From assembly GCA_017459565.1 (NCBI GenBank), contig JAFUCP010000202.1, positions 1 to 33,181 on the forward strand: 33,181 nt of DNA. Reading direction: 5' to 3'. The notes below the pieces were generated by a model, which did no database searches, was not told the DNA's origin, and worked only from the letters and a program-made list of their open reading frames with translations. Both the position numbers and the translations under genes were made by a program. Position 1 is the first letter of the stretch. Each line of letters begins with the position of its first letter. Positions 8,222-31,390 of the stretch are shown piece by piece. The DNA comes from Clostridia bacterium (lineage in GTDB: Bacteria > Bacillota > Clostridia > Christensenellales > Aristaeellaceae).

Positions 8222-9889
8222 ATGAGAAGGTCACTTGCGTTTGCGTTGCTTTTGTGCTTTGCCATGCCTTTTTGCGCCATGGGCGCCGCCGCGGAGAAGA
8301 CGGGACTGGCCCGGGACGTACTCGTGCTGTTCACCAGCGACGTTCACTGCGGCGTGGACCAGAATTTCGGCTATGCGGGCCTGCAGGCTGTGCGGGACAC
8401 GGCGGCGCAGGAGGATTATGTGCTGCTGGTAGACGATGGCGACTCCATTCAGGGGGAACCCATCGGCATCCTGACGCGCGGCCAGGCGAACATCGAGCTG
8501 ATGAACAAAATGGGCTATGACGTGGCGATTCCCGGCAACCATGAGTTCGACTACGGCATGGATCGCTTTTTCGAATTGGCGGAGATGGCCGACTTTACCT
8601 ATGTCAGCTGCAATTTCGCCAAAAACGGCGAGCTTGTGTTTCCGGCCTATGTCATCAAGGAGTTTGACGGCGTTAAAATCGCGTTTGTGGGCATAACGAC
8701 CCCGGAGACGCTGACCTCGTCCACGCCCCGCTATTTCCAGGATGAGGACGGCAACTATATCTACAGCTTCTCCCAGGGCGGCGACGGATCGATGCTTTAT
8801 GAAAAGGTCCAAAAGGCAGTGGACGATGCGCGCGCCGAGGGCGCGGACTATGTGTTTGCGATTTCTCACCTGGGCAATGAGGCAGCGTGCGCGCCCTATA
8901 CCTACGCGGATGTGCTGGGGAATACCAGTGGCATCGACGCCATGCTGGACGGCCACAGCCACGATACCATGAAGGTCGTCATGCTGAACAAGAGCGGTGA
9001 AAACGTCATTCGCCAGGCCTGCGGCACGAAGATGGCCGGCATCGGCTGGCTGCGCATCTCCGCCGCGGACGGCAGCGTGGACACGGGCCTGTACACCTGG
9101 AACAACAGCGTTTCCGCCCCGGATTTGCTGGGGCTGGACAACGAGATGGATCGCCTGGTGGACGAGGCAACGGGCAGCATCCGTTCACAGCTTGAGGAGA
9201 GCGTCGGCGTTTCAAATGTGGAGCTGACCATCAACGACCCCACTGCCGTGGATGAGAGCGGCACCCCCGTGCGCATCGTGCGCCGCGCGGAGACGAACCT
9301 GGGCGATCTGTGCGCCGATGCCTTCCGGGATCAGATGGGCGCGGAAGTGGGAATCGTTACCGGCGGCAGCATACGAAAGAGCATTGACGTGGGCGATATC
9401 ACCGTGAACGAGATTCTCGGTGTGTTTCCCTTTGGCAACAGGGTCGGTGTCATCGAGGCCACCGGTCAGCAGCTTTTGGACATGCTGGAATACGGCGTCA
9501 GCGCCGTGCCCAGCGAGAACGGCGCTTTCCCGCACGTGTCCGGCATGAGCTATGAGATCGATATGTCCGTGCCCAGCAGTGTGAAGCGGGACAAAAACGG
9601 CTTGTATACGGGCATCGAGGGTGAATACCGCATCAAGAACGTGATGGTGGGCGGCGAACCCCTGGACCTGGAAAAGACCTATACCATCGCGGCGCAGAGC
9701 TATGTGCTGGTGGACCACGGCGACGGAATCACCGCCTTTGACGGTTGCAAGCTGCTGAAGGAAAGCGAGGAACTGGACTACCGGCTGATCATCGCCCATA
9801 TCCGGGATACGCTGGGCGGCGTCGTGGGCGAGGGCTATGAGAATCCCTACGGCCAGGAGCGCGCCGTTGCCATTGGCCAGGACGAATAA
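8222..9889 (+). CDS. Exported 5'-nucleotidase / 2',3'-cyclic phosphodiesterase family
   Basis: 555 residues with a signal peptide (MRRSLAFALLLCFAMPFCAMG). The N-terminal calcineurin-like phosphoesterase domain shows the two-metal site: D40 and H42 (SDVHCG), D74 (DDGDS), N106-H107 (PGNHEFD) and H245/H247 (GHSHD). A 5_nucleotid_C domain follows from about residue 355 (NLGDLCADAF at 359, then GGSIRKSI and FPFGNR). Enzymes of this family remove phosphate from extracellular nucleotides, helping salvage of nucleosides and phosphate. ATG 8222 is preceded by AGGAGAAGCGAA; an in-frame ATG at 8084 would start upstream of the predicted transcription start and lacks a signal peptide. No cell-wall LPXTG motif is seen. 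It leads a run of five exported proteins ending at 15974. Confidence 0.93.
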   Translation: MRRSLAFALLLCFAMPFCAMGAAAEKTGLARDVLVLFTSDVHCGVDQNFGYAGLQAVRDTAAQEDYVLLVDDGDSIQGEPIGILTRGQANIELMNKMGYDVAIPGNHEFDYGMDRFFELAEMADFTYVSCNFAKNGELVFPAYVIKEFDGVKIAFVGITTPETLTSSTPRYFQDEDGNYIYSFSQGGDGSMLYEKVQKAVDDARAEGADYVFAISHLGNEAACAPYTYADVLGNTSGIDAMLDGHSHDTMKVVMLNKSGENVIRQACGTKMAGIGWLRISAADGSVDTGLYTWNNSVSAPDLLGLDNEMDRLVDEATGSIRSQLEESVGVSNVELTINDPTAVDESGTPVRIVRRAETNLGDLCADAFRDQMGAEVGIVTGGSIRKSIDVGDITVNEILGVFPFGNRVGVIEATGQQLLDMLEYGVSAVPSENGAFPHVSGMSYEIDMSVPSSVKRDKNGLYTGIEGEYRIKNVMVGGEPLDLEKTYTIAAQSYVLVDHGDGITAFDGCKLLKESEELDYRLIIAHIRDTLGGVVGEGYENPYGQERAVAIGQDE

Positions 9890-9937
9890 CTGCCGATAAA
9901 CTGCGAATAAAAAGCAATATATTCAAGGAGGTACAGT

Positions 9938-11791
9938 ATGAAAGCGATTCAGAGGATACTGGCGCTGACCGTGGCGCTGCTGCTGGCGGTCGCCGCCTGC
10001 GCCCTCGGCGAGGAGACGGAGCAGACGGAGCAGACGGGACTGCGCAGGCTGCGGCTGGGCAGCTCTGTCTACACGGTGATGATCGATGATGATTTTGTGT
10101 CCTGTGATTTGACGGAGGAGGATATCGCGGACGACGAAATCGGCTATTACCAGTGCGATGAAACCGGCCTTGACTTTGACCTGTACCAGTTCAGCAAGGA
10201 GGGCGTCGCCCAGGAGCTGAGCCACTATACGATGGAGGAGGCCAACGGATACGACGCGGTGGAGGTGGTCTGGCCGAACGCCGTGATCAACGATATCCCG
10301 GTAGGCTGGTACCGCACCCGGGAGACATGGGAGGGCGTTGAATACGACACCGCCACCTACATTTTAGACAACGGCGACGATTATGTGGAGCTGGTGTTCT
10401 GGATGGAGGACGAGGATGACGCCGAGAGAGCCCGTCAGATCATGGAATCCCTGCAATACATTGAGCTTCAGGAGATTCGGCTGGGCGATTCCAGCTTCAC
10501 GCTCACCCTTCCCGACGACTACGTGCAGGGCAGCATGACCCCCGAGGATATGATGGACGACCAGGTGGCCTACTGGTACAGCGACGCGACGCTGCTGGAT
10601 TTTGACGTGTACCAGTTCAGCAAGGCGGGGCTGAGCGAGAACCTGGCGGATTATGCCGCCGAGGAAGCCGCCGCCTGCTACGGCGTGACGGAGCTTGTGA
10701 CCGACGAAGTCATCAACCTGATCCCTGTGGCCCATTACCGCGCGGTGGAGGAGTTCGAAGAGGGTGAATACGACACCCTCACCTACATCATGGACGATGG
10801 CGACGAATACGTTGAAATCGTGTTCTGGCTGGACGGCTTGACCGCCGAGGCGGAGGCCGATTACATCATTCACAACCTGATCGACGAATCGCTGTTTGAG
10901 GCCGACGGGGAGGAGGAAGCCGCGGCCCTGCCCGAGGGCGTGACGCCCGTGACCTGGGATGTTACCCCGGAGCATCCGATGATCGACACCGACGAGGCCC
11001 GCGCGCTGTATGAGCGCATCGTGGCGGAGGACTATCCTACGATGGAGGAGCTGCTGGCCGATCCCGTGGTGGCTCAGCTGGACGCGCTGTCCGCCTATTA
11101 CAGGCAGTTCTACGGCAACACCGCCGATATTGACACGCCGGAGCGCGAGGAGCTGCGAGAGGAGCTGAAGAACTGGTTCCTGGGCCTGGGCTCCGCCCGC
11201 ACCGAAAGCGTGGACGAGAACGGCAAACACAGCTATGTCTATGACGGCCCCCTGAACCGCGATTTCCAGATGGAGCTGGTGCTGGGCCTGCCGGCATCCG
11301 GCAAGTCTACCCGTGTGGCCGACCCGGATAGCGAGGCCATGGGCGCTTTCATACTGGACGTGGACATGATCAAGGCGGAAATCCCAGAATACAAGGAGAG
11401 CCATGGCGCGGGCGCGGACGCGGTACACTTTGAGGGCTTTGCCATCTTCAACCGTGCTTTGGACGCCTTCCTGACCGGCGAAATGAAGGGCGTGAACATC
11501 GTGCTGCCCATTGTCGGCACCGATTTGGACGAGATGATGCAGCAGTACATACTGCCCTTTGAGGCGGCTGGCTACAATGTGAAGGCGCGGTTCTGCCCTG
11601 CGAAGGAAAACGAAGCCGCGGCCCGCGTGGTGATGCGCGAGCTGGGCGGCGGCCAGCTGATCAACAGCAAGGTGGCCTTCAACTTCGGCGCCGGCCCGGA
11701 AAACGTCTACAATGAATTGAAGGACATGATCAATTCATACGGCGAGCCCTATGGCTATGAAGAGGACGCGGCGCTGGAGCCCGCGGCGTAA
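9938..11791 (+). CDS. Predicted exported protein: two repeat domains plus zeta-toxin-like P-loop kinase domain
   Basis: 617 residues. A hydrophobic leader ends in VAAC, a plausible lipobox with C21; cleavage further on, after ALG, is the alternative. Two tandem repeats of about 140 residues follow (about 35-175 and 176-315), sharing LDFDLYQFSK / LDFDVYQFSK, EYDT-TYI and YVELVFW / YVEIVFW. The C-terminal part (about 440-600) is a P-loop kinase: Walker A GLPASGKST (450-458, K456), then LDVDMIKAEIPEY (473-485), as in zeta toxins that phosphorylate UDP-N-acetylglucosamine. Zeta toxins act in the cytosol; here the whole protein is predicted outside the membrane, where ATP is scarce. No epsilon-like antitoxin is adjacent. 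ATG 9938 has AAGGAGG nearby. The neighbours all encode exported wall-type proteins. Kinase activity and export need proof; the leader might be misread. Confidence 0.75.
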   Translation: MKAIQRILALTVALLLAVAACALGEETEQTEQTGLRRLRLGSSVYTVMIDDDFVSCDLTEEDIADDEIGYYQCDETGLDFDLYQFSKEGVAQELSHYTMEEANGYDAVEVVWPNAVINDIPVGWYRTRETWEGVEYDTATYILDNGDDYVELVFWMEDEDDAERARQIMESLQYIELQEIRLGDSSFTLTLPDDYVQGSMTPEDMMDDQVAYWYSDATLLDFDVYQFSKAGLSENLADYAAEEAAACYGVTELVTDEVINLIPVAHYRAVEEFEEGEYDTLTYIMDDGDEYVEIVFWLDGLTAEAEADYIIHNLIDESLFEADGEEEAAALPEGVTPVTWDVTPEHPMIDTDEARALYERIVAEDYPTMEELLADPVVAQLDALSAYYRQFYGNTADIDTPEREELREELKNWFLGLGSARTESVDENGKHSYVYDGPLNRDFQMELVLGLPASGKSTRVADPDSEAMGAFILDVDMIKAEIPEYKESHGAGADAVHFEGFAIFNRALDAFLTGEMKGVNIVLPIVGTDLDEMMQQYILPFEAAGYNVKARFCPAKENEAAARVVMRELGGGQLINSKVAFNFGAGPENVYNELKDMINSYGEPYGYEEDAALEPAA

Positions 11792-11824: not shown

Positions 11825-12313
11825 ATGAAGCGATTCAAGAAGTTTCTGGCGGCGCTGTTGATCGCGGCGTTCTGCCTGTCCATGGTTGGCGCGCTGGCGG
11901 ACGGCGTGGTGCGCACCACCGGCAATCTGAACCTGCGCAAGGGCCCGGGCCTGGGCTACAAGTCCATTCGCACCATCGGAGAAGGCGTCACTCTTGAGTA
12001 CGACAAGTCCGAAAAGGATGAGCGCGGCGTGCGCTGGTACCGGGTGACCTATAAGGGTCGCACGGGCTGGGTTTCTTCGAAGTATGCCAGGGAAGGCTCC
12101 TCCGGCGGCTCCGGCAGCAAGGTCAAAACCACCGGCAGCGTGCATATGCGCACCGGGGCGGGCCTGGATTACAAGTCCCTGCGCACCATTGGCAAGGGTG
12201 TGACCCTTTCCTATGATGAGACCAGGAAGGACGACCGCGGCGTCGTCTGGTATCACGTGAGCTACAAGGGCAAGAGCGGATGGGTTTCTTCCAAGTATGC
12301 CAAGAAGAAGTAA
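11825..12313 (+). CDS. Exported protein with two bacterial SH3 domains
   Basis: 162 residues: a signal peptide (cut after ALA near residue 25), then two SH3b domains (about 28-85 and 98-160). Both have the LNLRKGPGLGYKS / VHMRTGAGLDYKS motif and end in GWVSSKYA. SH3b domains bind cell-wall peptides. A short Gly-Ser linker (SSGGSGS) separates the domains. There is no enzymatic part, so this may be a wall-binding accessory protein. AGGAGG precedes the ATG at 11825 and the following gene starts 25 bases after its stop, so all are probably one transcript. Confidence 0.9.
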   Translation: MKRFKKFLAALLIAAFCLSMVGALADGVVRTTGNLNLRKGPGLGYKSIRTIGEGVTLEYDKSEKDERGVRWYRVTYKGRTGWVSSKYAREGSSGGSGSKVKTTGSVHMRTGAGLDYKSLRTIGKGVTLSYDETRKDDRGVVWYHVSYKGKSGWVSSKYAKKK

Positions 12314-12338
12314 CGCGCGCAAAGGAGGTTTTCCCAAG

Positions 12339-13667
12339 ATGAAAAGATGGATTCTGTCCGTGCTTTCGATCCTGCTGGTTCTGACGATGGTTCTCCCCGT
12401 GCTGGCTCTGGCCGATGAGGATACGATTGTCGAGGGCGTAGATTACTATCTGGTGGAACACTATCCGGTGTATTCCCTCAAGGAAGGCCTGAAGCTGTAC
12501 AACAAGCAGACCCGCAAGAGCCATTCCGTCCGGCAGCTGGCCTATGGCGAGGAAATGATCGTTGAGGCCGTCTCTGCGGACGGGCTGTGGCTGGGCATCA
12601 CCTATCAGAAAAAGGGCAAGACCCGCTTTGCCTGGGCCCAGAAGGAATACTTGAGCGATATCAGGCCCAGCGGCGGTTCGCCCGCGCCCGCGCCAACGCC
12701 CGCGCCCGCGCCAGAGAAGAAGAAAAAGACGGCTGAAAAGACGCAGGAGCAGAAGCAGGCCGAGGCCGCGAAGGCCGCGGAGCAGGCCAAGAGGCAGATC
12801 GACAGCGTGCTGGGCAGCATGACCGTCGTCGCGCCCTATAACGCCATGATCACCACCAAGACCGTCGACGGCACCGTGGCGCTGCGCTGGCAGCCCACCA
12901 CCGAAGGCAAGCTCATCGGCTATCTGCCCAACGGCACGCGCCTTACGGTGCTGGCTGAGGGAGACGGCTGGTTCCAGGTGACAGACGAGCAGAACGGCAG
13001 CACCGGCTTCATGTCCAGCAGGTACATTACCCGCGTTGCCACGCAAAGCGAGCCTGTAGAAACCTTGCCCGTGGAAATCTTGCCCGTGGAAACCCTGCCC
13101 TCGTCCGCCGAGCCTGCTGTCGTCGCTCCTCTGACGAAAAGCGTGGACGTGGCCAATCTGCCCGACGGCACCTGGCCCGTGTCCTTCAACGGCGGGGACG
13201 TCCTCTCCGGGGCGTCCGGCATCTTCATGAACGCCGTGCATGTTTTTGCGATGGACCTGTATGACGCCGTGGCCGTCAATGCACTGGCCGAGGGGGATAC
13301 CCTGGTTGTGGAGGGCGCGCCCCACGCCGTGACCTCGGTGCAGCGCAGCGGGGAAACCGTCGTCGTCAATGGCGGCATGGATGCGGACGGCTGGGAGCTT
13401 GCGCCTGTGGACGGCAGTGTCTACCGCGTGTTCGGCTATAACGATATGGCAACCTATACCGAACTGGGCGTGGCTTCGCTGATGCTGGCGCCGGAAGCCA
13501 CATATGTGGACGGCTTCGATCTGGACGCTCCTGCCCAGACGGTTCAGTACGGCGGCATCGTGGAGGCGATCGCCACCGTGGAGCCGGACAGCTTCAGCGT
13601 ATACAACACCACTCTGCGCACCGAAGGGGGCAGGGTTGTCGAGATCAATCGTGCGTACATGCCGTAG
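12339..13667 (+). CDS. Exported SH3-domain protein with a novel C-terminal module
   Basis: 442 residues. The signal peptide ends at ALA (about residue 25). A first SH3-like stretch (about 30-110) is followed by a PAPAPTPAPAP linker and a Lys/Glu/Ala-rich helix (about 115-155), then an SH3b domain (about 164-234). A short repeat of PVE-LP units (about 247-256) leads to a C-terminal module (264-442). That module is shared with the next protein: both contain NLPDG, GDVL-GASG-FMNAVH and YNTTLR-EGG. The start ATG 12339 lies ten bases after AAAGGAGG (12321-12328); longer readings begin inside the upstream gene. Role unknown; the layout suggests a wall-associated scaffold or adhesin. Confidence 0.88.
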   Translation: MKRWILSVLSILLVLTMVLPVLALADEDTIVEGVDYYLVEHYPVYSLKEGLKLYNKQTRKSHSVRQLAYGEEMIVEAVSADGLWLGITYQKKGKTRFAWAQKEYLSDIRPSGGSPAPAPTPAPAPEKKKKTAEKTQEQKQAEAAKAAEQAKRQIDSVLGSMTVVAPYNAMITTKTVDGTVALRWQPTTEGKLIGYLPNGTRLTVLAEGDGWFQVTDEQNGSTGFMSSRYITRVATQSEPVETLPVEILPVETLPSSAEPAVVAPLTKSVDVANLPDGTWPVSFNGGDVLSGASGIFMNAVHVFAMDLYDAVAVNALAEGDTLVVEGAPHAVTSVQRSGETVVVNGGMDADGWELAPVDGSVYRVFGYNDMATYTELGVASLMLAPEATYVDGFDLDAPAQTVQYGGIVEAIATVEPDSFSVYNTTLRTEGGRVVEINRAYMP

Positions 13668-13718: not shown

Positions 13719-15974
13719 ATGAACAAATGGATCAAGCTGTGTGCTATGATTGCCCTGGTATTGGCAATCGTGCTGAGCGTCACCGCGCTGGCGGACGTGC
13801 CCTACAACGGGCCGCTGCCGCTGTATGTGAACCGCGAGAAGATCAAGGTTTACCGTGAACAGAACACGAAGTCCAAGACCATCGTCAAGATCAAGGGCGC
13901 GCAGGCCGTGACGCCTGAGCTTGTGAGCGACGACGGCCAGTGGATTGGCATCCTGGTGGAGGATACCAAGCATGGCGGACAGATGATTGGCTGGGTGCAG
14001 GCGGAGCTGCTGGTGGATTACTTCCCCCAGAGCCTGTGCGACCATCACTGGTCCGATTGGACGGTGGAAAAGGAAGCTACCTGTACCGAGAAGGGGTATC
14101 GCTGGCGCACCTGCGTCATCTGCGGCATCCGCGATGAAAAGGATATCAAGAAGAAGGACCACGATTGGGGCAAGTGGAAGGTCCAGAAGGAAGCCACCTG
14201 CTATACCAAGGGCAAGCGCACCCATACCTGCAAGAACTGCGGCTATGAGGAGTCCGAGGAGTACTACGAGGACCACGATTTCGGTTCCTGGGAAATGACC
14301 AAGGAGCCCACCTGCTCCGAGCAGGGTGAGCGTCAGCACACCTGCAAGGTCTGCGGCACCGTAAAGACCCAGGCGCTGGAGACGCTGCCCCACGACTATG
14401 AGTACCAGGTGACGCTGGAGGCCACCGACCACTCCGCGGGCGTGCGCGCCAAAGTGTGCAGGAACTGCGGCGCGTCCACGGCGGAGGAGAGTTTCGATCC
14501 TGAGGGCACCATCCGCCGCGGCGACAGGGGCGAGGCTGTGCAGACGATCCAGCAGCTGCTGGTGGAGCAGGGCTATCTGAACGCCGGCGGCGCGGACGGC
14601 ATCTTCGGCGGCGGCACCGAAAAGGCGCTGATGAAATACCAGCAGGACCGCAGTCTGAACCCGGACGGCGTTGCATGGCCGCAGACGATCGATGATTTGC
14701 AGCATGACTTCGGCCCCTGGACCACCGTTCAGGAAATGACCCGCTCCCAGTCCGGCGAGCGCGTGCGCGTGTGCAACGGCTGCGGCTTTGAACAGCATGA
14801 GGTCGTCAATGCCGGTACGGTGCTTGAAAAGGGCAACCGCGGCGAAAACGTTCGCGCCATGCAGCAGATCATCAAGGAGGTCGGCTACGATGCCGGCGGC
14901 TTTGACGGCATCTACGGCAAGAAGCTGGACGCCGCGCTGGCGGGCTTTGCCGCCGCCAACGGCATGGTGGTCGAGGAGGGCAAGATCCGCCCCTCCGATG
15001 TGGACGCGGTGGTGAACGCCTGGTTTGACACCATCCCCGCGGAGAACTGGAAGGGCGAAGGCGGCCTGGAGAGCCCTGTGAACTTGGCCCTGACGGTGGA
15101 GCCTGCCGGCGAACCCGACGACAGCGGTGTTCGCGCCTACAACTGGTCTCTGACCAACCTGGGCAGCGAAAAGGCCATGTTCAACACCCTGCTGCTGACC
15201 TTTGGCGAGCCGGACTTCACGAAGGAAGACCTGGTGATGGTGCTGGACGGCTTTGAGCTTCAGACGAACGCCGGCAACAGCGTCTCCGGCAGCTTCAACG
15301 TGGACGTCGACTGGGGCGAGGGCGACCTGAATTTCGCGGCGATGGCCGTTTCCGAGGCCGACGGCTCCAAGTGGCTCAGCAATACCGTGAGCTATGAGAA
15401 CGTGGTCAATCCCGGCGAAAAGACCATCGCGCCCATGACGTACGATATCGATGTGAACAATCTGCCGGACGGCATTTATCCCGTCTCCTTTGACCGCGGC
15501 GACGTGCTGAACGGCGCTTCCGGCACCTTTATGAACGCTGTACACATCTATACCGAGGATTGGTATGATATCCTGGATGTTCATACTCTCAAGGCGGGCG
15601 ATACCGTCATCGTCGAGGGCGAGCCGGTGCCGGTGCTTTCCGTTGAGAAGAGCGAAAATGGTTACAGCGTGAACGAGGGGCAGGATGTCCGGGAGTTCTG
15701 GTTTGTCAGCAAGGACGACAACAACGGCTTCTGCATCCAGGGCCTTGACGATCTGACCACCTACACCGAACAGGGTGTGACCACGCTGCTGCTGGACGCC
15801 AATGTCAGCTTCACGGATGCCTGGGACATTGAGAAGGAGCCCGTCACCGTGACCGGCGATGCCGTCGTGGAGGCCATGCAGAGCAGTGAAAACGATTACT
15901 TTGTGCCCTACAACACCACGCTGCGCGTTGAGGGCGGCAAGGTCGTGGAAATTCACCGCGTTTATGTGCCGTAA
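13719..15974 (+). CDS. Exported multidomain protein: Cys-rich repeats, two peptidoglycan-binding domains and shared C-terminal module
   Basis: 751 residues. After a signal peptide (cut after ALA, residue 25) comes an SH3-like segment (about 30-102). Four zinc-ribbon-like repeats with a His-x-Trp start, Cys-Thr or Cys-Ser, then Cys-x-x-Cys-Gly, lie at about 106-255, with a degenerate fifth at 330-362. Two PG_binding_1 domains (about 265-330 and 368-430) each carry a DGI(F/Y)G motif. A beta-rich region (450-570) and the C-terminal module (573-751, as in the preceding gene) complete it. Peptidoglycan-binding domains tether proteins to the wall; the Cys-rich repeats may bind zinc or form disulfides. 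A GGAGGA ribosome site precedes ATG 13719. No hydrolase motif is visible, so the protein is structural or adhesive rather than clearly catalytic. Confidence 0.9.
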   Translation: MNKWIKLCAMIALVLAIVLSVTALADVPYNGPLPLYVNREKIKVYREQNTKSKTIVKIKGAQAVTPELVSDDGQWIGILVEDTKHGGQMIGWVQAELLVDYFPQSLCDHHWSDWTVEKEATCTEKGYRWRTCVICGIRDEKDIKKKDHDWGKWKVQKEATCYTKGKRTHTCKNCGYEESEEYYEDHDFGSWEMTKEPTCSEQGERQHTCKVCGTVKTQALETLPHDYEYQVTLEATDHSAGVRAKVCRNCGASTAEESFDPEGTIRRGDRGEAVQTIQQLLVEQGYLNAGGADGIFGGGTEKALMKYQQDRSLNPDGVAWPQTIDDLQHDFGPWTTVQEMTRSQSGERVRVCNGCGFEQHEVVNAGTVLEKGNRGENVRAMQQIIKEVGYDAGGFDGIYGKKLDAALAGFAAANGMVVEEGKIRPSDVDAVVNAWFDTIPAENWKGEGGLESPVNLALTVEPAGEPDDSGVRAYNWSLTNLGSEKAMFNTLLLTFGEPDFTKEDLVMVLDGFELQTNAGNSVSGSFNVDVDWGEGDLNFAAMAVSEADGSKWLSNTVSYENVVNPGEKTIAPMTYDIDVNNLPDGIYPVSFDRGDVLNGASGTFMNAVHIYTEDWYDILDVHTLKAGDTVIVEGEPVPVLSVEKSENGYSVNEGQDVREFWFVSKDDNNGFCIQGLDDLTTYTEQGVTTLLLDANVSFTDAWDIEKEPVTVTGDAVVEAMQSSENDYFVPYNTTLRVEGGKVVEIHRVYVP

Positions 15975-16042: not shown

Positions 16043-16139
16043 GCATAGTGCGCCGGGCATGGCGCACATCTAACCGGTGGAAGTCCGGTCGCGGGTAGTT
16101 ACCGCCAAGCGTAGCGAACCGCAAGCTGCTGGTGGCGAC

Positions 16140-16988
16140 GCCATCAGGGAGCGTGTCAATGAGGCGAAGGTTCTCCACCTGATACGGAGTTTTCTCCGGG
16201 CGGGGGTGATGGAGAGCGGGTTGGTCAGCCCGACGGAGGAGGGCGTGCCGCAAGGCGGGCCGTTGTCGCCGGTGCTGAGCAACATATACCTCGACAAGCT
16301 CGACAGGGAACTGGAATGCAGGGGACTGGGCTTTGTACGATACGCAGATGATTGCGACATATTCGTGCGAAGCGAGAAGGCGGCGGACCGGGTGATGACA
16401 AGCGTGAGCAGTTGGCTGGAGCGTAAGCTGAGGCTGAAGGTGAGCGCGAGCAAGACCAAGGTGGTCAGACCGACCAAGAGCACCTTCCTGGGATTCAGCT
16501 TCTGGAAATCAATGGAGGGATGGAAACCAAGGCCGGCAAAGGACCGAAAGGCCAGGCTGTGCGAGAAGGTGAAGGCAGTCCTGTGCAGGAAACGAGCGGC
16601 GGCGATGCCGCTGGGAGCCGTCTTCGTAAAGCTGAACCAGATACTGCGAGGCTGGATAAACTACTTCCGAATCGGCAGTATGAAGGGATGGCTGAGAGAC
16701 GATTTTTGCCCGTGGATGCGGCACAAGGTGAGAGTGGTGATACTCAAACAGTGGAAGAAGCCGAAGACGATTTACAGAAATCTGATGCGGCTGAACACCA
16801 AAATGCATTGCAACATGACCCACGAGGACATCTTCAAGGCGGCGAATTCCCGTTTGGGACCGTTCCGAAGGGCAGGACGTGATGTGGTGAACTTCCTGCT
16901 GAGTCCCAAAGTGCTTGCCTTGCCTAATAAGAAAGAGAACCGGCCTGGTTTGGTCGATCCTCTCGCTTACTACCTGGGTAATACGTGA
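16140..16988 (+). pseudogene. Group II intron reverse transcriptase/maturase, N-terminally truncated
   Basis: The reading frame, fused at its 5' side to intron domain I sequence, preserves RT blocks from the motif GVPQGGPLSPVLSNIYLD onward, then the active site YADD, the segment KSTFLGFSFW, and the maturase (X) domain with LRGWINYFRI and QWKKPKT. RT blocks 0-3 are missing, so the palm lacks its first catalytic aspartate. There is no HNH endonuclease at the C-terminus, as usual in class C. The protein cannot be an active reverse transcriptase; whether the maturase domain still folds is unknown. No credible start codon with ribosome site exists. Confidence 0.88.
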
Positions 16989-31290: not shown

Positions 31291-31390
31291 CAACAGAGTA
31301 GGGCCCTCTTCGTTAAGTGCCGCCAAAATGGGGAGTTGTCTGGCGGACGAAGGCGAAAGCTGCGGTTGAAGGCCCGCACCCGCTGAGACC
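31291..31390 (+). ncRNA. Tetrahydrofolate (THF) riboswitch
   Basis: The order of conserved blocks is that of the THF riboswitch: GAGTAGG, CGTTAAGTGCC, GGGAGTTGTC, GACGAAGGCGAAAGC, TGCGGTTGAAGGCC and CGCACCCGCTGAG. The riboswitch binds reduced folates and controls folate transport or synthesis genes; here folT lies 65 bases downstream. The ends are approximate by a few bases. Confidence 0.92.

What the first reader, a model, noticed from the sequence alone, without database searches (positions are those of the whole stretch)
9938..11791. A predicted exported or lipid-anchored zeta-toxin-like kinase
A signal or lipoprotein leader, two novel tandem domains and a C-terminal P-loop kinase with GLPASGKST sit in one chain. 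Zeta toxins use ATP to phosphorylate UDP-GlcNAc in the cytosol. A version sent to the wall space would be new: it might be a toxin for neighbours, a modified enzyme with another phosphate donor, or a degenerate domain used for binding. It stands within a set of wall-binding proteins and no epsilon antitoxin is nearby.
Basis: partly seen in the sequence, partly recalled or inferred. Interest (0 to 1): 0.7.

Follow-up and report, generated by a model that had tools for sequence, protein, structure and literature searches.

The report
Exported zeta-type kinase near phosphatases
Rumen and gut bacteria of the Clostridia appear to have taken a toxin-like kinase module from phages, given it an export signal and tied it to exported phosphate-removing enzymes, which would make it a kinase-like enzyme working outside the cell, where such enzymes are hardly known in bacteria.

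Summary
The ORF 9938-11791 (617 aa) has a clear signal peptide, two copies of one ~135-aa domain and a C-terminal zeta-type P-loop module. The AlphaFold2 model of the module (mean pLDDT 93) has zeta toxin as its best PDB match, and so does the sequence profile. Export is a family trait: 16 of 17 relatives with a readable 5' end have a leader. They come in at least five architectures: alone, behind a UshA-type 5'-nucleotidase, behind the tandem domain, behind a HAD phosphatase, or before an HD-like domain. The lipid anchor is not a family trait (lipobox in 2 of 16). Exported modules form one clade, nested among phage zeta domains, under purifying selection. K456, D474, D476 and R567 are invariant. 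Two residues essential in zeta toxin are replaced: E116 by Pro (always) and R171 by Gln (15 of 17). So UDP-GlcNAc poisoning is unlikely, although phosphoryl transfer remains possible. UshA is fused or adjacent in eight loci, including a Lachnospiraceae one. I conclude that this is a new exported branch of the zeta kinase superfamily, recruited from phages, most likely acting with phosphohydrolases on extracellular nucleotides or nucleotide sugars. Export and fold are well supported by sequence; activity and substrate are inferred.

The parts
9925..9932 (+). Ribosome-binding site AAGGAGGT, 5 bases before the ATG
   Evidence: sequence read directly
9938..10009 (+). Signal peptide (aa 1-24, MKAIQRILALTVALLLAVAACALG); lipobox-like VAAC at aa 18-21, not conserved in relatives
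10049..10453 (+). First copy of the ~135-aa domain of unknown function (aa 38-172)
10475..10879 (+). Second copy of the same domain (aa 180-314); stand-alone exported homologues exist in the same genus
10928..11257 (+). Helical lead-in of the kinase module (aa ~331-440), shared with phage relatives (TPER..LR...L..GSA)
   Evidence: alignments; model
11267..11707 (+). Zeta-type P-loop kinase core (aa ~444-590)
   Evidence: Pfam; PDB profile; AlphaFold2; Foldseek
11285..11311 (+). Walker A GLPASGKST (aa 450-458, K456)
11357..11365 (+). D474-V-D476; D476 aligns with zeta catalytic D67
   Evidence: residue role from PMC6356619
11426..11434 (+). H497-F-E499, motif shared with the phage relatives but not with zeta toxin
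11507..11509 (+). P524, which replaces zeta E116
11636..11638 (+). R567, aligns with zeta R158
11654..11656 (+). Q573, at the place of the conserved Arg of phage relatives (probable zeta R171)
   Evidence: equation with R171 by position, inferred
8222..9889 (+). Exported UshA-type 5'-nucleotidase / metallophosphoesterase, ends 48 bases upstream; fused to the kinase module in relatives
11825..12313 (+). Exported SH3_3 protein 33 bases downstream; same neighbour in L041 (70% identity)
12297..13667 (+). SH3_3 protein, next in the apparent operon
13719..15974 (+). PG_binding_1 protein; relative lies downstream of the nucleotidase-kinase fusion in L034

Best explanation
The gene encodes an exported protein whose C-terminal half is a zeta-type P-loop kinase module recruited from a phage protein. 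The signal peptide sends it across the membrane (inferred from sequence in 16 of 17 relatives). Outside, the module most likely binds a nucleoside triphosphate through the Walker A lysine K456 and moves or releases its gamma phosphate, with D476 as base and R567 as phosphate sensor (inferred from alignment to zeta toxin). Its substrate is probably not UDP-GlcNAc in the way of zeta toxin, because the residues at zeta E116 and R171 are changed. It is tied by fusion or adjacency to exported phosphohydrolases (UshA-type 5'-nucleotidase, a DHH-family protein of pyrophosphatase type, HAD phosphatase). I therefore think that it is one step of an extracytoplasmic route that processes nucleotides or nucleotide sugars for salvage, the partner enzymes stripping the phosphates. 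The tandem domain of the window chain is an accessory, possibly holding or binding part.
For: Export: leaders in all but one of the chains with a readable 5' end, in five or more architectures. Fold: model pLDDT 93; top PDB hits are zeta toxin 3q8x/1gvn, then AvrRxo1 and PezT; profile hits are zeta 2e-9, Pnkp1 6e-9, PezT 3e-6. Active-site core: G450, K456, D474, D476, E499, R567 invariant in 17 of 17 exported rows. Purifying selection: dN/dS 0.09-0.33 across 12 pairs with the window where it could be computed, 0.05-0.22 in other pairs. Origin: exported modules form one group (96/96), whose neighbour is a phage protein (100/99), within phage zeta domains; Iyer et al. 2017 describe zeta-like kinases in phage and conjugative polyvalent proteins (PMC5512222). 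Partners: UshA fused (L034, L040, L035, L037, degenerate in L032) or adjacent (window, L042, L047); exported DHH-DHHA2 protein adjacent in L033 and L036; HAD fused in L046 and L047; HD-like domain in L043.
Against: No activity or location was measured. ATP outside the cell is scarce and UshA would compete for nucleotides. R171 of zeta, essential there, is Gln in 15 of 17. L043/L044 keep the domain under purifying selection with a broken Walker A (GVHKST), and L044 lacks a leader. Several UshA fusions are close relatives, so the association counts few independent events. Leaders were judged by a hydropathy script and by eye, not by a trained predictor.
Confidence: 0.5

Rival explanations
1. Degenerate domain: the P-loop fold is kept for binding (nucleotide, sugar nucleotide or protein) or as a structural wall module, without catalysis.
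For: Zeta E116 and R171 equivalents replaced; one lineage with GVHKST still under strong purifying selection (dN/dS 0.05, L043/L044); ATP is scarce outside cells.
Against: K456, D474, D476 and R567 invariant in 17 of 17. E116 is also absent from most of the phage relatives, so its loss is older than export.
Confidence: 0.22
2. Extracellular polynucleotide or nucleoside kinase that conditions scavenged nucleic acids, with the phosphohydrolases as partners, as in T4 Pnkp (kinase plus HAD phosphatase) or bacterial Pnkp (kinase plus metallophosphoesterase).
For: Second-best profile hit is Pnkp1 4xrp (6e-9); Foldseek also returns T4 and Clostridium thermocellum kinases; partners belong to the same phosphohydrolase superfamilies.
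Against: Zeta family ranks first by structure and sequence; UshA enzymes act on mononucleotides and nucleotide sugars rather than polymer ends (general knowledge).
Confidence: 0.1
3. Secreted antibacterial toxin of the polymorphic kind: variable N-terminal parts deliver a C-terminal zeta toxin to neighbours.
For: Kinase module is the C-terminal part in most fusions; zeta toxins kill when free in the cytosol.
Against: N-terminal parts are enzymes, not delivery domains; neighbours differ between loci, without a shared small immunity-like gene; residues needed for zeta toxicity (E116, R171; PMC6356619) are replaced; one full copy per genome, no toxin array.
Confidence: 0.09
4. Ordinary cytosolic zeta-type toxin or a gene-call/assembly artefact (false leader or chimeric ORF).
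For: Most annotated zeta toxins are cytosolic; the kinase module and the tandem domain lie in separate genes in other genomes of the genus.
Against: Leaders in 16 of 17 relatives on unrelated N-terminal contexts; same fusion and neighbour gene in L041; good ribosome-binding site before the leader.
Confidence: 0.04

Closest known systems
Zeta / PezT toxins of epsilon-zeta toxin-antitoxin systems (Pfam PF06414)
   Same: Fold, Walker A, D67 (=D476) and R158 (=R567)
   Different: Exported; no epsilon partner recognised; E116 to Pro and R171 to Gln; HxE motif instead; fused or next to phosphohydrolases
Zeta-toxin-like kinase domains of phage and conjugative polyvalent or MuF proteins (Iyer et al. 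2017, PMC5512222)
   Same: Closest sequence relatives (L090 36%, L092 30%, L069 33-35%); share the helical lead-in, DxD, HxE and N..LP.VG motifs
   Different: Phage ones lack a leader, sit in large phage proteins and keep Arg where the exported ones have Gln
AvrRxo1 (type III effector with zeta fold)
   Same: Zeta fold in a protein that leaves the producing cell
   Different: Injected by a secretion machine into a host cytosol, with a chaperone/antitoxin gene; here a Sec-type leader and no such partner
T4 Pnkp and bacterial Pnkp kinase domains
   Same: P-loop kinase joined with HAD or metallophosphoesterase phosphatases
   Different: Cytosolic nucleic acid repair; closer match here is zeta
UshA-type 5'-nucleotidase / UDP-sugar hydrolase
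   Same: It is the neighbour or N-terminal fusion partner, with metal-binding motifs present (DVH, GD, GNHE, GHSH)
   Different: Known members are not fused to a P-loop kinase, as far as I know
CotH family kinases (PF08757)
   Same: A leader-bearing CotH protein lies 20 bases downstream of the kinase gene in L042, another kinase family predicted to be exported
   Different: Protein-kinase-like fold, unrelated to P-loop kinases

Membership tests
Zeta toxin superfamily (PF06414) | Sequence match to the family model above its cut-off | tested here: met
   Relatives L045, L046, L041, L039 pass (38.5, 32.2, 30.7, 24.0 bits vs 22.3); all 35 aligned members hit at E <= 0.01. P0001 itself is just below (19.2-21.1 bits)
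Zeta toxin superfamily (PF06414) | Zeta fold | tested here: met
   Model pLDDT 93; Foldseek best hits 3q8x, 1gvn, E 5e-5 to 2e-4, TM 0.42-0.49
Epsilon-zeta toxin-antitoxin toxin | Adjacent epsilon-type antitoxin gene | tested here: not met
   Neighbours are UshA and SH3 genes; no shared small partner gene in relatives
Epsilon-zeta toxin-antitoxin toxin | K46, D67, E116, R158, R171, needed for toxicity (PMC6356619) | tested here: not met
   K, D and R158 conserved in 17 of 17; E116 is Pro in 17 of 17; Arg at the R171 place in only 2 of 17
Epsilon-zeta toxin-antitoxin toxin | Phosphorylates UDP-GlcNAc; toxic in the cytosol | not testable with these tools
   Needs enzyme assay and expression test
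Phage polyvalent/MuF zeta-like kinase domain | Common ancestry with phage zeta domains | tested here: met
   Exported clade 96/96, joined to phage L090 at 100/99 and nested among phage rows; long branches make exact placing unsure
Exported protein (Sec signal peptide) | n-region, hydrophobic core, conserved in relatives | tested here: met
   16 of 17; no trained predictor was available
Bacterial lipoprotein | Lipobox cysteine conserved in the family | tested here: not met
   VAAC in window, VTAC in L043, none in 14 other leader-bearing kinase chains
Polymorphic toxin | Delivery domain and cognate immunity gene | tested here: not met
   No delivery domain, no conserved immunity-like gene

The most novel reading that the evidence does not exclude
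A branch of zeta-type P-loop kinases, captured from phages, has become a working extracytoplasmic phosphotransferase (or NTPase) of gut Clostridia, operating with exported nucleotidases and other phosphohydrolases on environmental nucleotides or nucleotide sugars: an enzyme class not described outside the bacterial cell.
Probability: 0.35. Interest if true: 0.78.

Novelty: new variant of a known kind. Interest (0 to 1): 0.6.

Why it matters
Zeta-type kinases are known as cytosolic toxins, phage polyvalent domains or injected effectors. A conserved clade with Sec-type leaders, joined to phosphohydrolases, would be a phage toxin fold domesticated for work outside the cell. It raises a testable question: which phosphate donor and substrate does a P-loop kinase use where ATP is scarce? 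It also points to an uncharacterised nucleotide-processing module in rumen and gut bacteria.

Tried and rejected
Chimera or recent fusion artefact: first suspected because one search found kinase and tandem domain at separate loci, rejected by L041. First AlphaFold2 run with 10 close relatives gave pLDDT 43 and was not used. PF06414 scan of the family was uninformative because weak P-loop hits ring in all control genomes. No relatives in plasmids, and none in viral contigs with A2 or single phage-type queries; profile A3 found 15. Literature searches for exported or secreted zeta toxins found no precedent, in an open-access library only.

Full report
What is there. The ORF 9938-11791 encodes 617 aa with a good ribosome-binding site. 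It starts with a typical signal peptide, followed by two copies of one ~135-aa domain (aa 38-172 and 180-314; local score 308 against 38 +/- 6 for shuffles) and a 290-aa C-terminal module with GLPASGKST. Pfam sees Zeta_toxin and AAA_33 just below their cut-offs in this protein, but above the Zeta_toxin cut-off in relatives.

The two halves have separate histories. In the same genus the tandem domain and the kinase module usually lie in different genes at different loci. The window chain joins them, and so does L041 from another genome, with the same SH3 gene behind it, so the fusion is not an assembly error. The kinase module is found in 11 of 28 genomes of the genus, one of these only as a fragment. 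Elsewhere it turned up only sparsely: a scan of 84,980 species genomes returned 19 loci, all Clostridia by record title, some of them named as rumen or goat-gut samples, and samples of the class and phylum found no further exported member.

Export is a family trait. I read the 5' end of every relative. Sixteen of 17 chains carry a leader; the exception, L044, is a near copy of L043 that has lost its leader. The leaders sit on quite different N-termini: directly before the kinase (L031, L033, L036, L039, L042, L045, L048, L049, the last split over two contigs), before a UshA-type 5'-nucleotidase fused to the kinase (L034, L040; the degenerate nucleotidase of L032), before the tandem domain (window, L041), before Big_2 plus HAD phosphatase plus kinase (L046, L047), and before kinase plus an HD-like domain (L043; HD-CE at 23.4 bits, under its cut-off of 27). 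A conserved lipobox is absent (2 of 16), so secretion or wall retention is better supported than a lipid anchor.

Fold and active site. A 35-row alignment that includes phage relatives gave a model with mean pLDDT 93. The best PDB matches are zeta toxin (3q8x, 1gvn), then AvrRxo1 and PezT. The profile finds zeta toxin at 2e-9 and Pnkp1 at 6e-9. Read against zeta, whose K46, D67, E116, R158 and R171 are needed for toxicity (PMC6356619), K456, D476 and R567 are invariant; E116 is Pro in 17 of 17, and the Arg at the presumed R171 place is Gln in 15 of 17. Most of the phage relatives also lack E116 but keep the Arg. The E116 equation comes from the HMMER alignment; the R171 equation is by position and less sure. 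dN/dS is 0.09-0.33 for the 12 pairs with the window in which it could be computed, so the module is maintained by selection.

Origin. A tree puts all exported modules on one branch (96/96), joined to a phage protein (L090, 100/99) and nested in phage zeta domains. Many of these phage domains lie in large proteins (for example 2462 aa in L069) of the polyvalent kind, for which Iyer et al. reported zeta-like kinases (PMC5512222). Long branches make the exact place unsure.

Partners. A UshA-type nucleotidase with canonical metal motifs ends 48 bases upstream of the window gene. A homologue is fused to the kinase in L034, L035, L037, L040 and, decayed, in L032, lies just upstream in L042, and downstream in the Lachnospiraceae locus L047. 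In L033 and L036 the neighbour is a leader-bearing DHH-DHHA2 protein of the family-II pyrophosphatase type. The common thread is exported enzymes that remove phosphate from nucleotides or pyrophosphate. Several of these loci are related, so independent events are few.

Interpretation. The evidence shows, at sequence level, an exported, selected zeta-type P-loop module of phage origin. It suggests, but does not show, that the module still moves phosphate. It makes a neighbour-killing zeta toxin unlikely: no immunity gene, no delivery domain, changed active site. My best reading is an extracytoplasmic nucleotide or nucleotide-sugar processing step, at about 50%; the main rival is a binding or structural domain without catalysis.

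Noticed in passing
L042:4888-6435: A leader-bearing CotH-family kinase (PF08757, 4e-38) lies 20 bases behind the exported zeta-type kinase gene, so two unrelated kinase families predicted to be exported stand side by side.
   Followed up: partly
L033:3207-4322 and L036:2717-3787: Leader-bearing DHH-DHHA2 proteins of the family-II pyrophosphatase type next to the kinase gene; this enzyme class is normally cytosolic.
   Followed up: partly
L043:149-2521 and L044:3962-4939: A lineage whose Walker A reads GVHKST (Gly lost) yet stays under strong purifying selection (dN/dS 0.05); L044 has also lost the leader.
   Followed up: partly
L047:2735-7266: The kinase chain and the following DUF3089/5'-nucleotidase ORF overlap by a few bases with a Big-like domain apparently running across, as if one long chain were split by a frameshift.
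   Followed up: no
window 16077-16988: Group II intron reverse transcriptase/maturase ORF lacking its N-terminal part (RVT_1 matched from position 95), inside the run of wall-protein genes.
   Followed up: no
window 31292-31387: THF riboswitch (RF01831, 73.4 bits), ordinary.
   Followed up: no
window 9938-10912 and L011-L030: An uncharacterised ~135-aa exported domain, single or in two or more tandem copies, widespread in this genus with no significant Pfam or PDB relative.
   Followed up: partly
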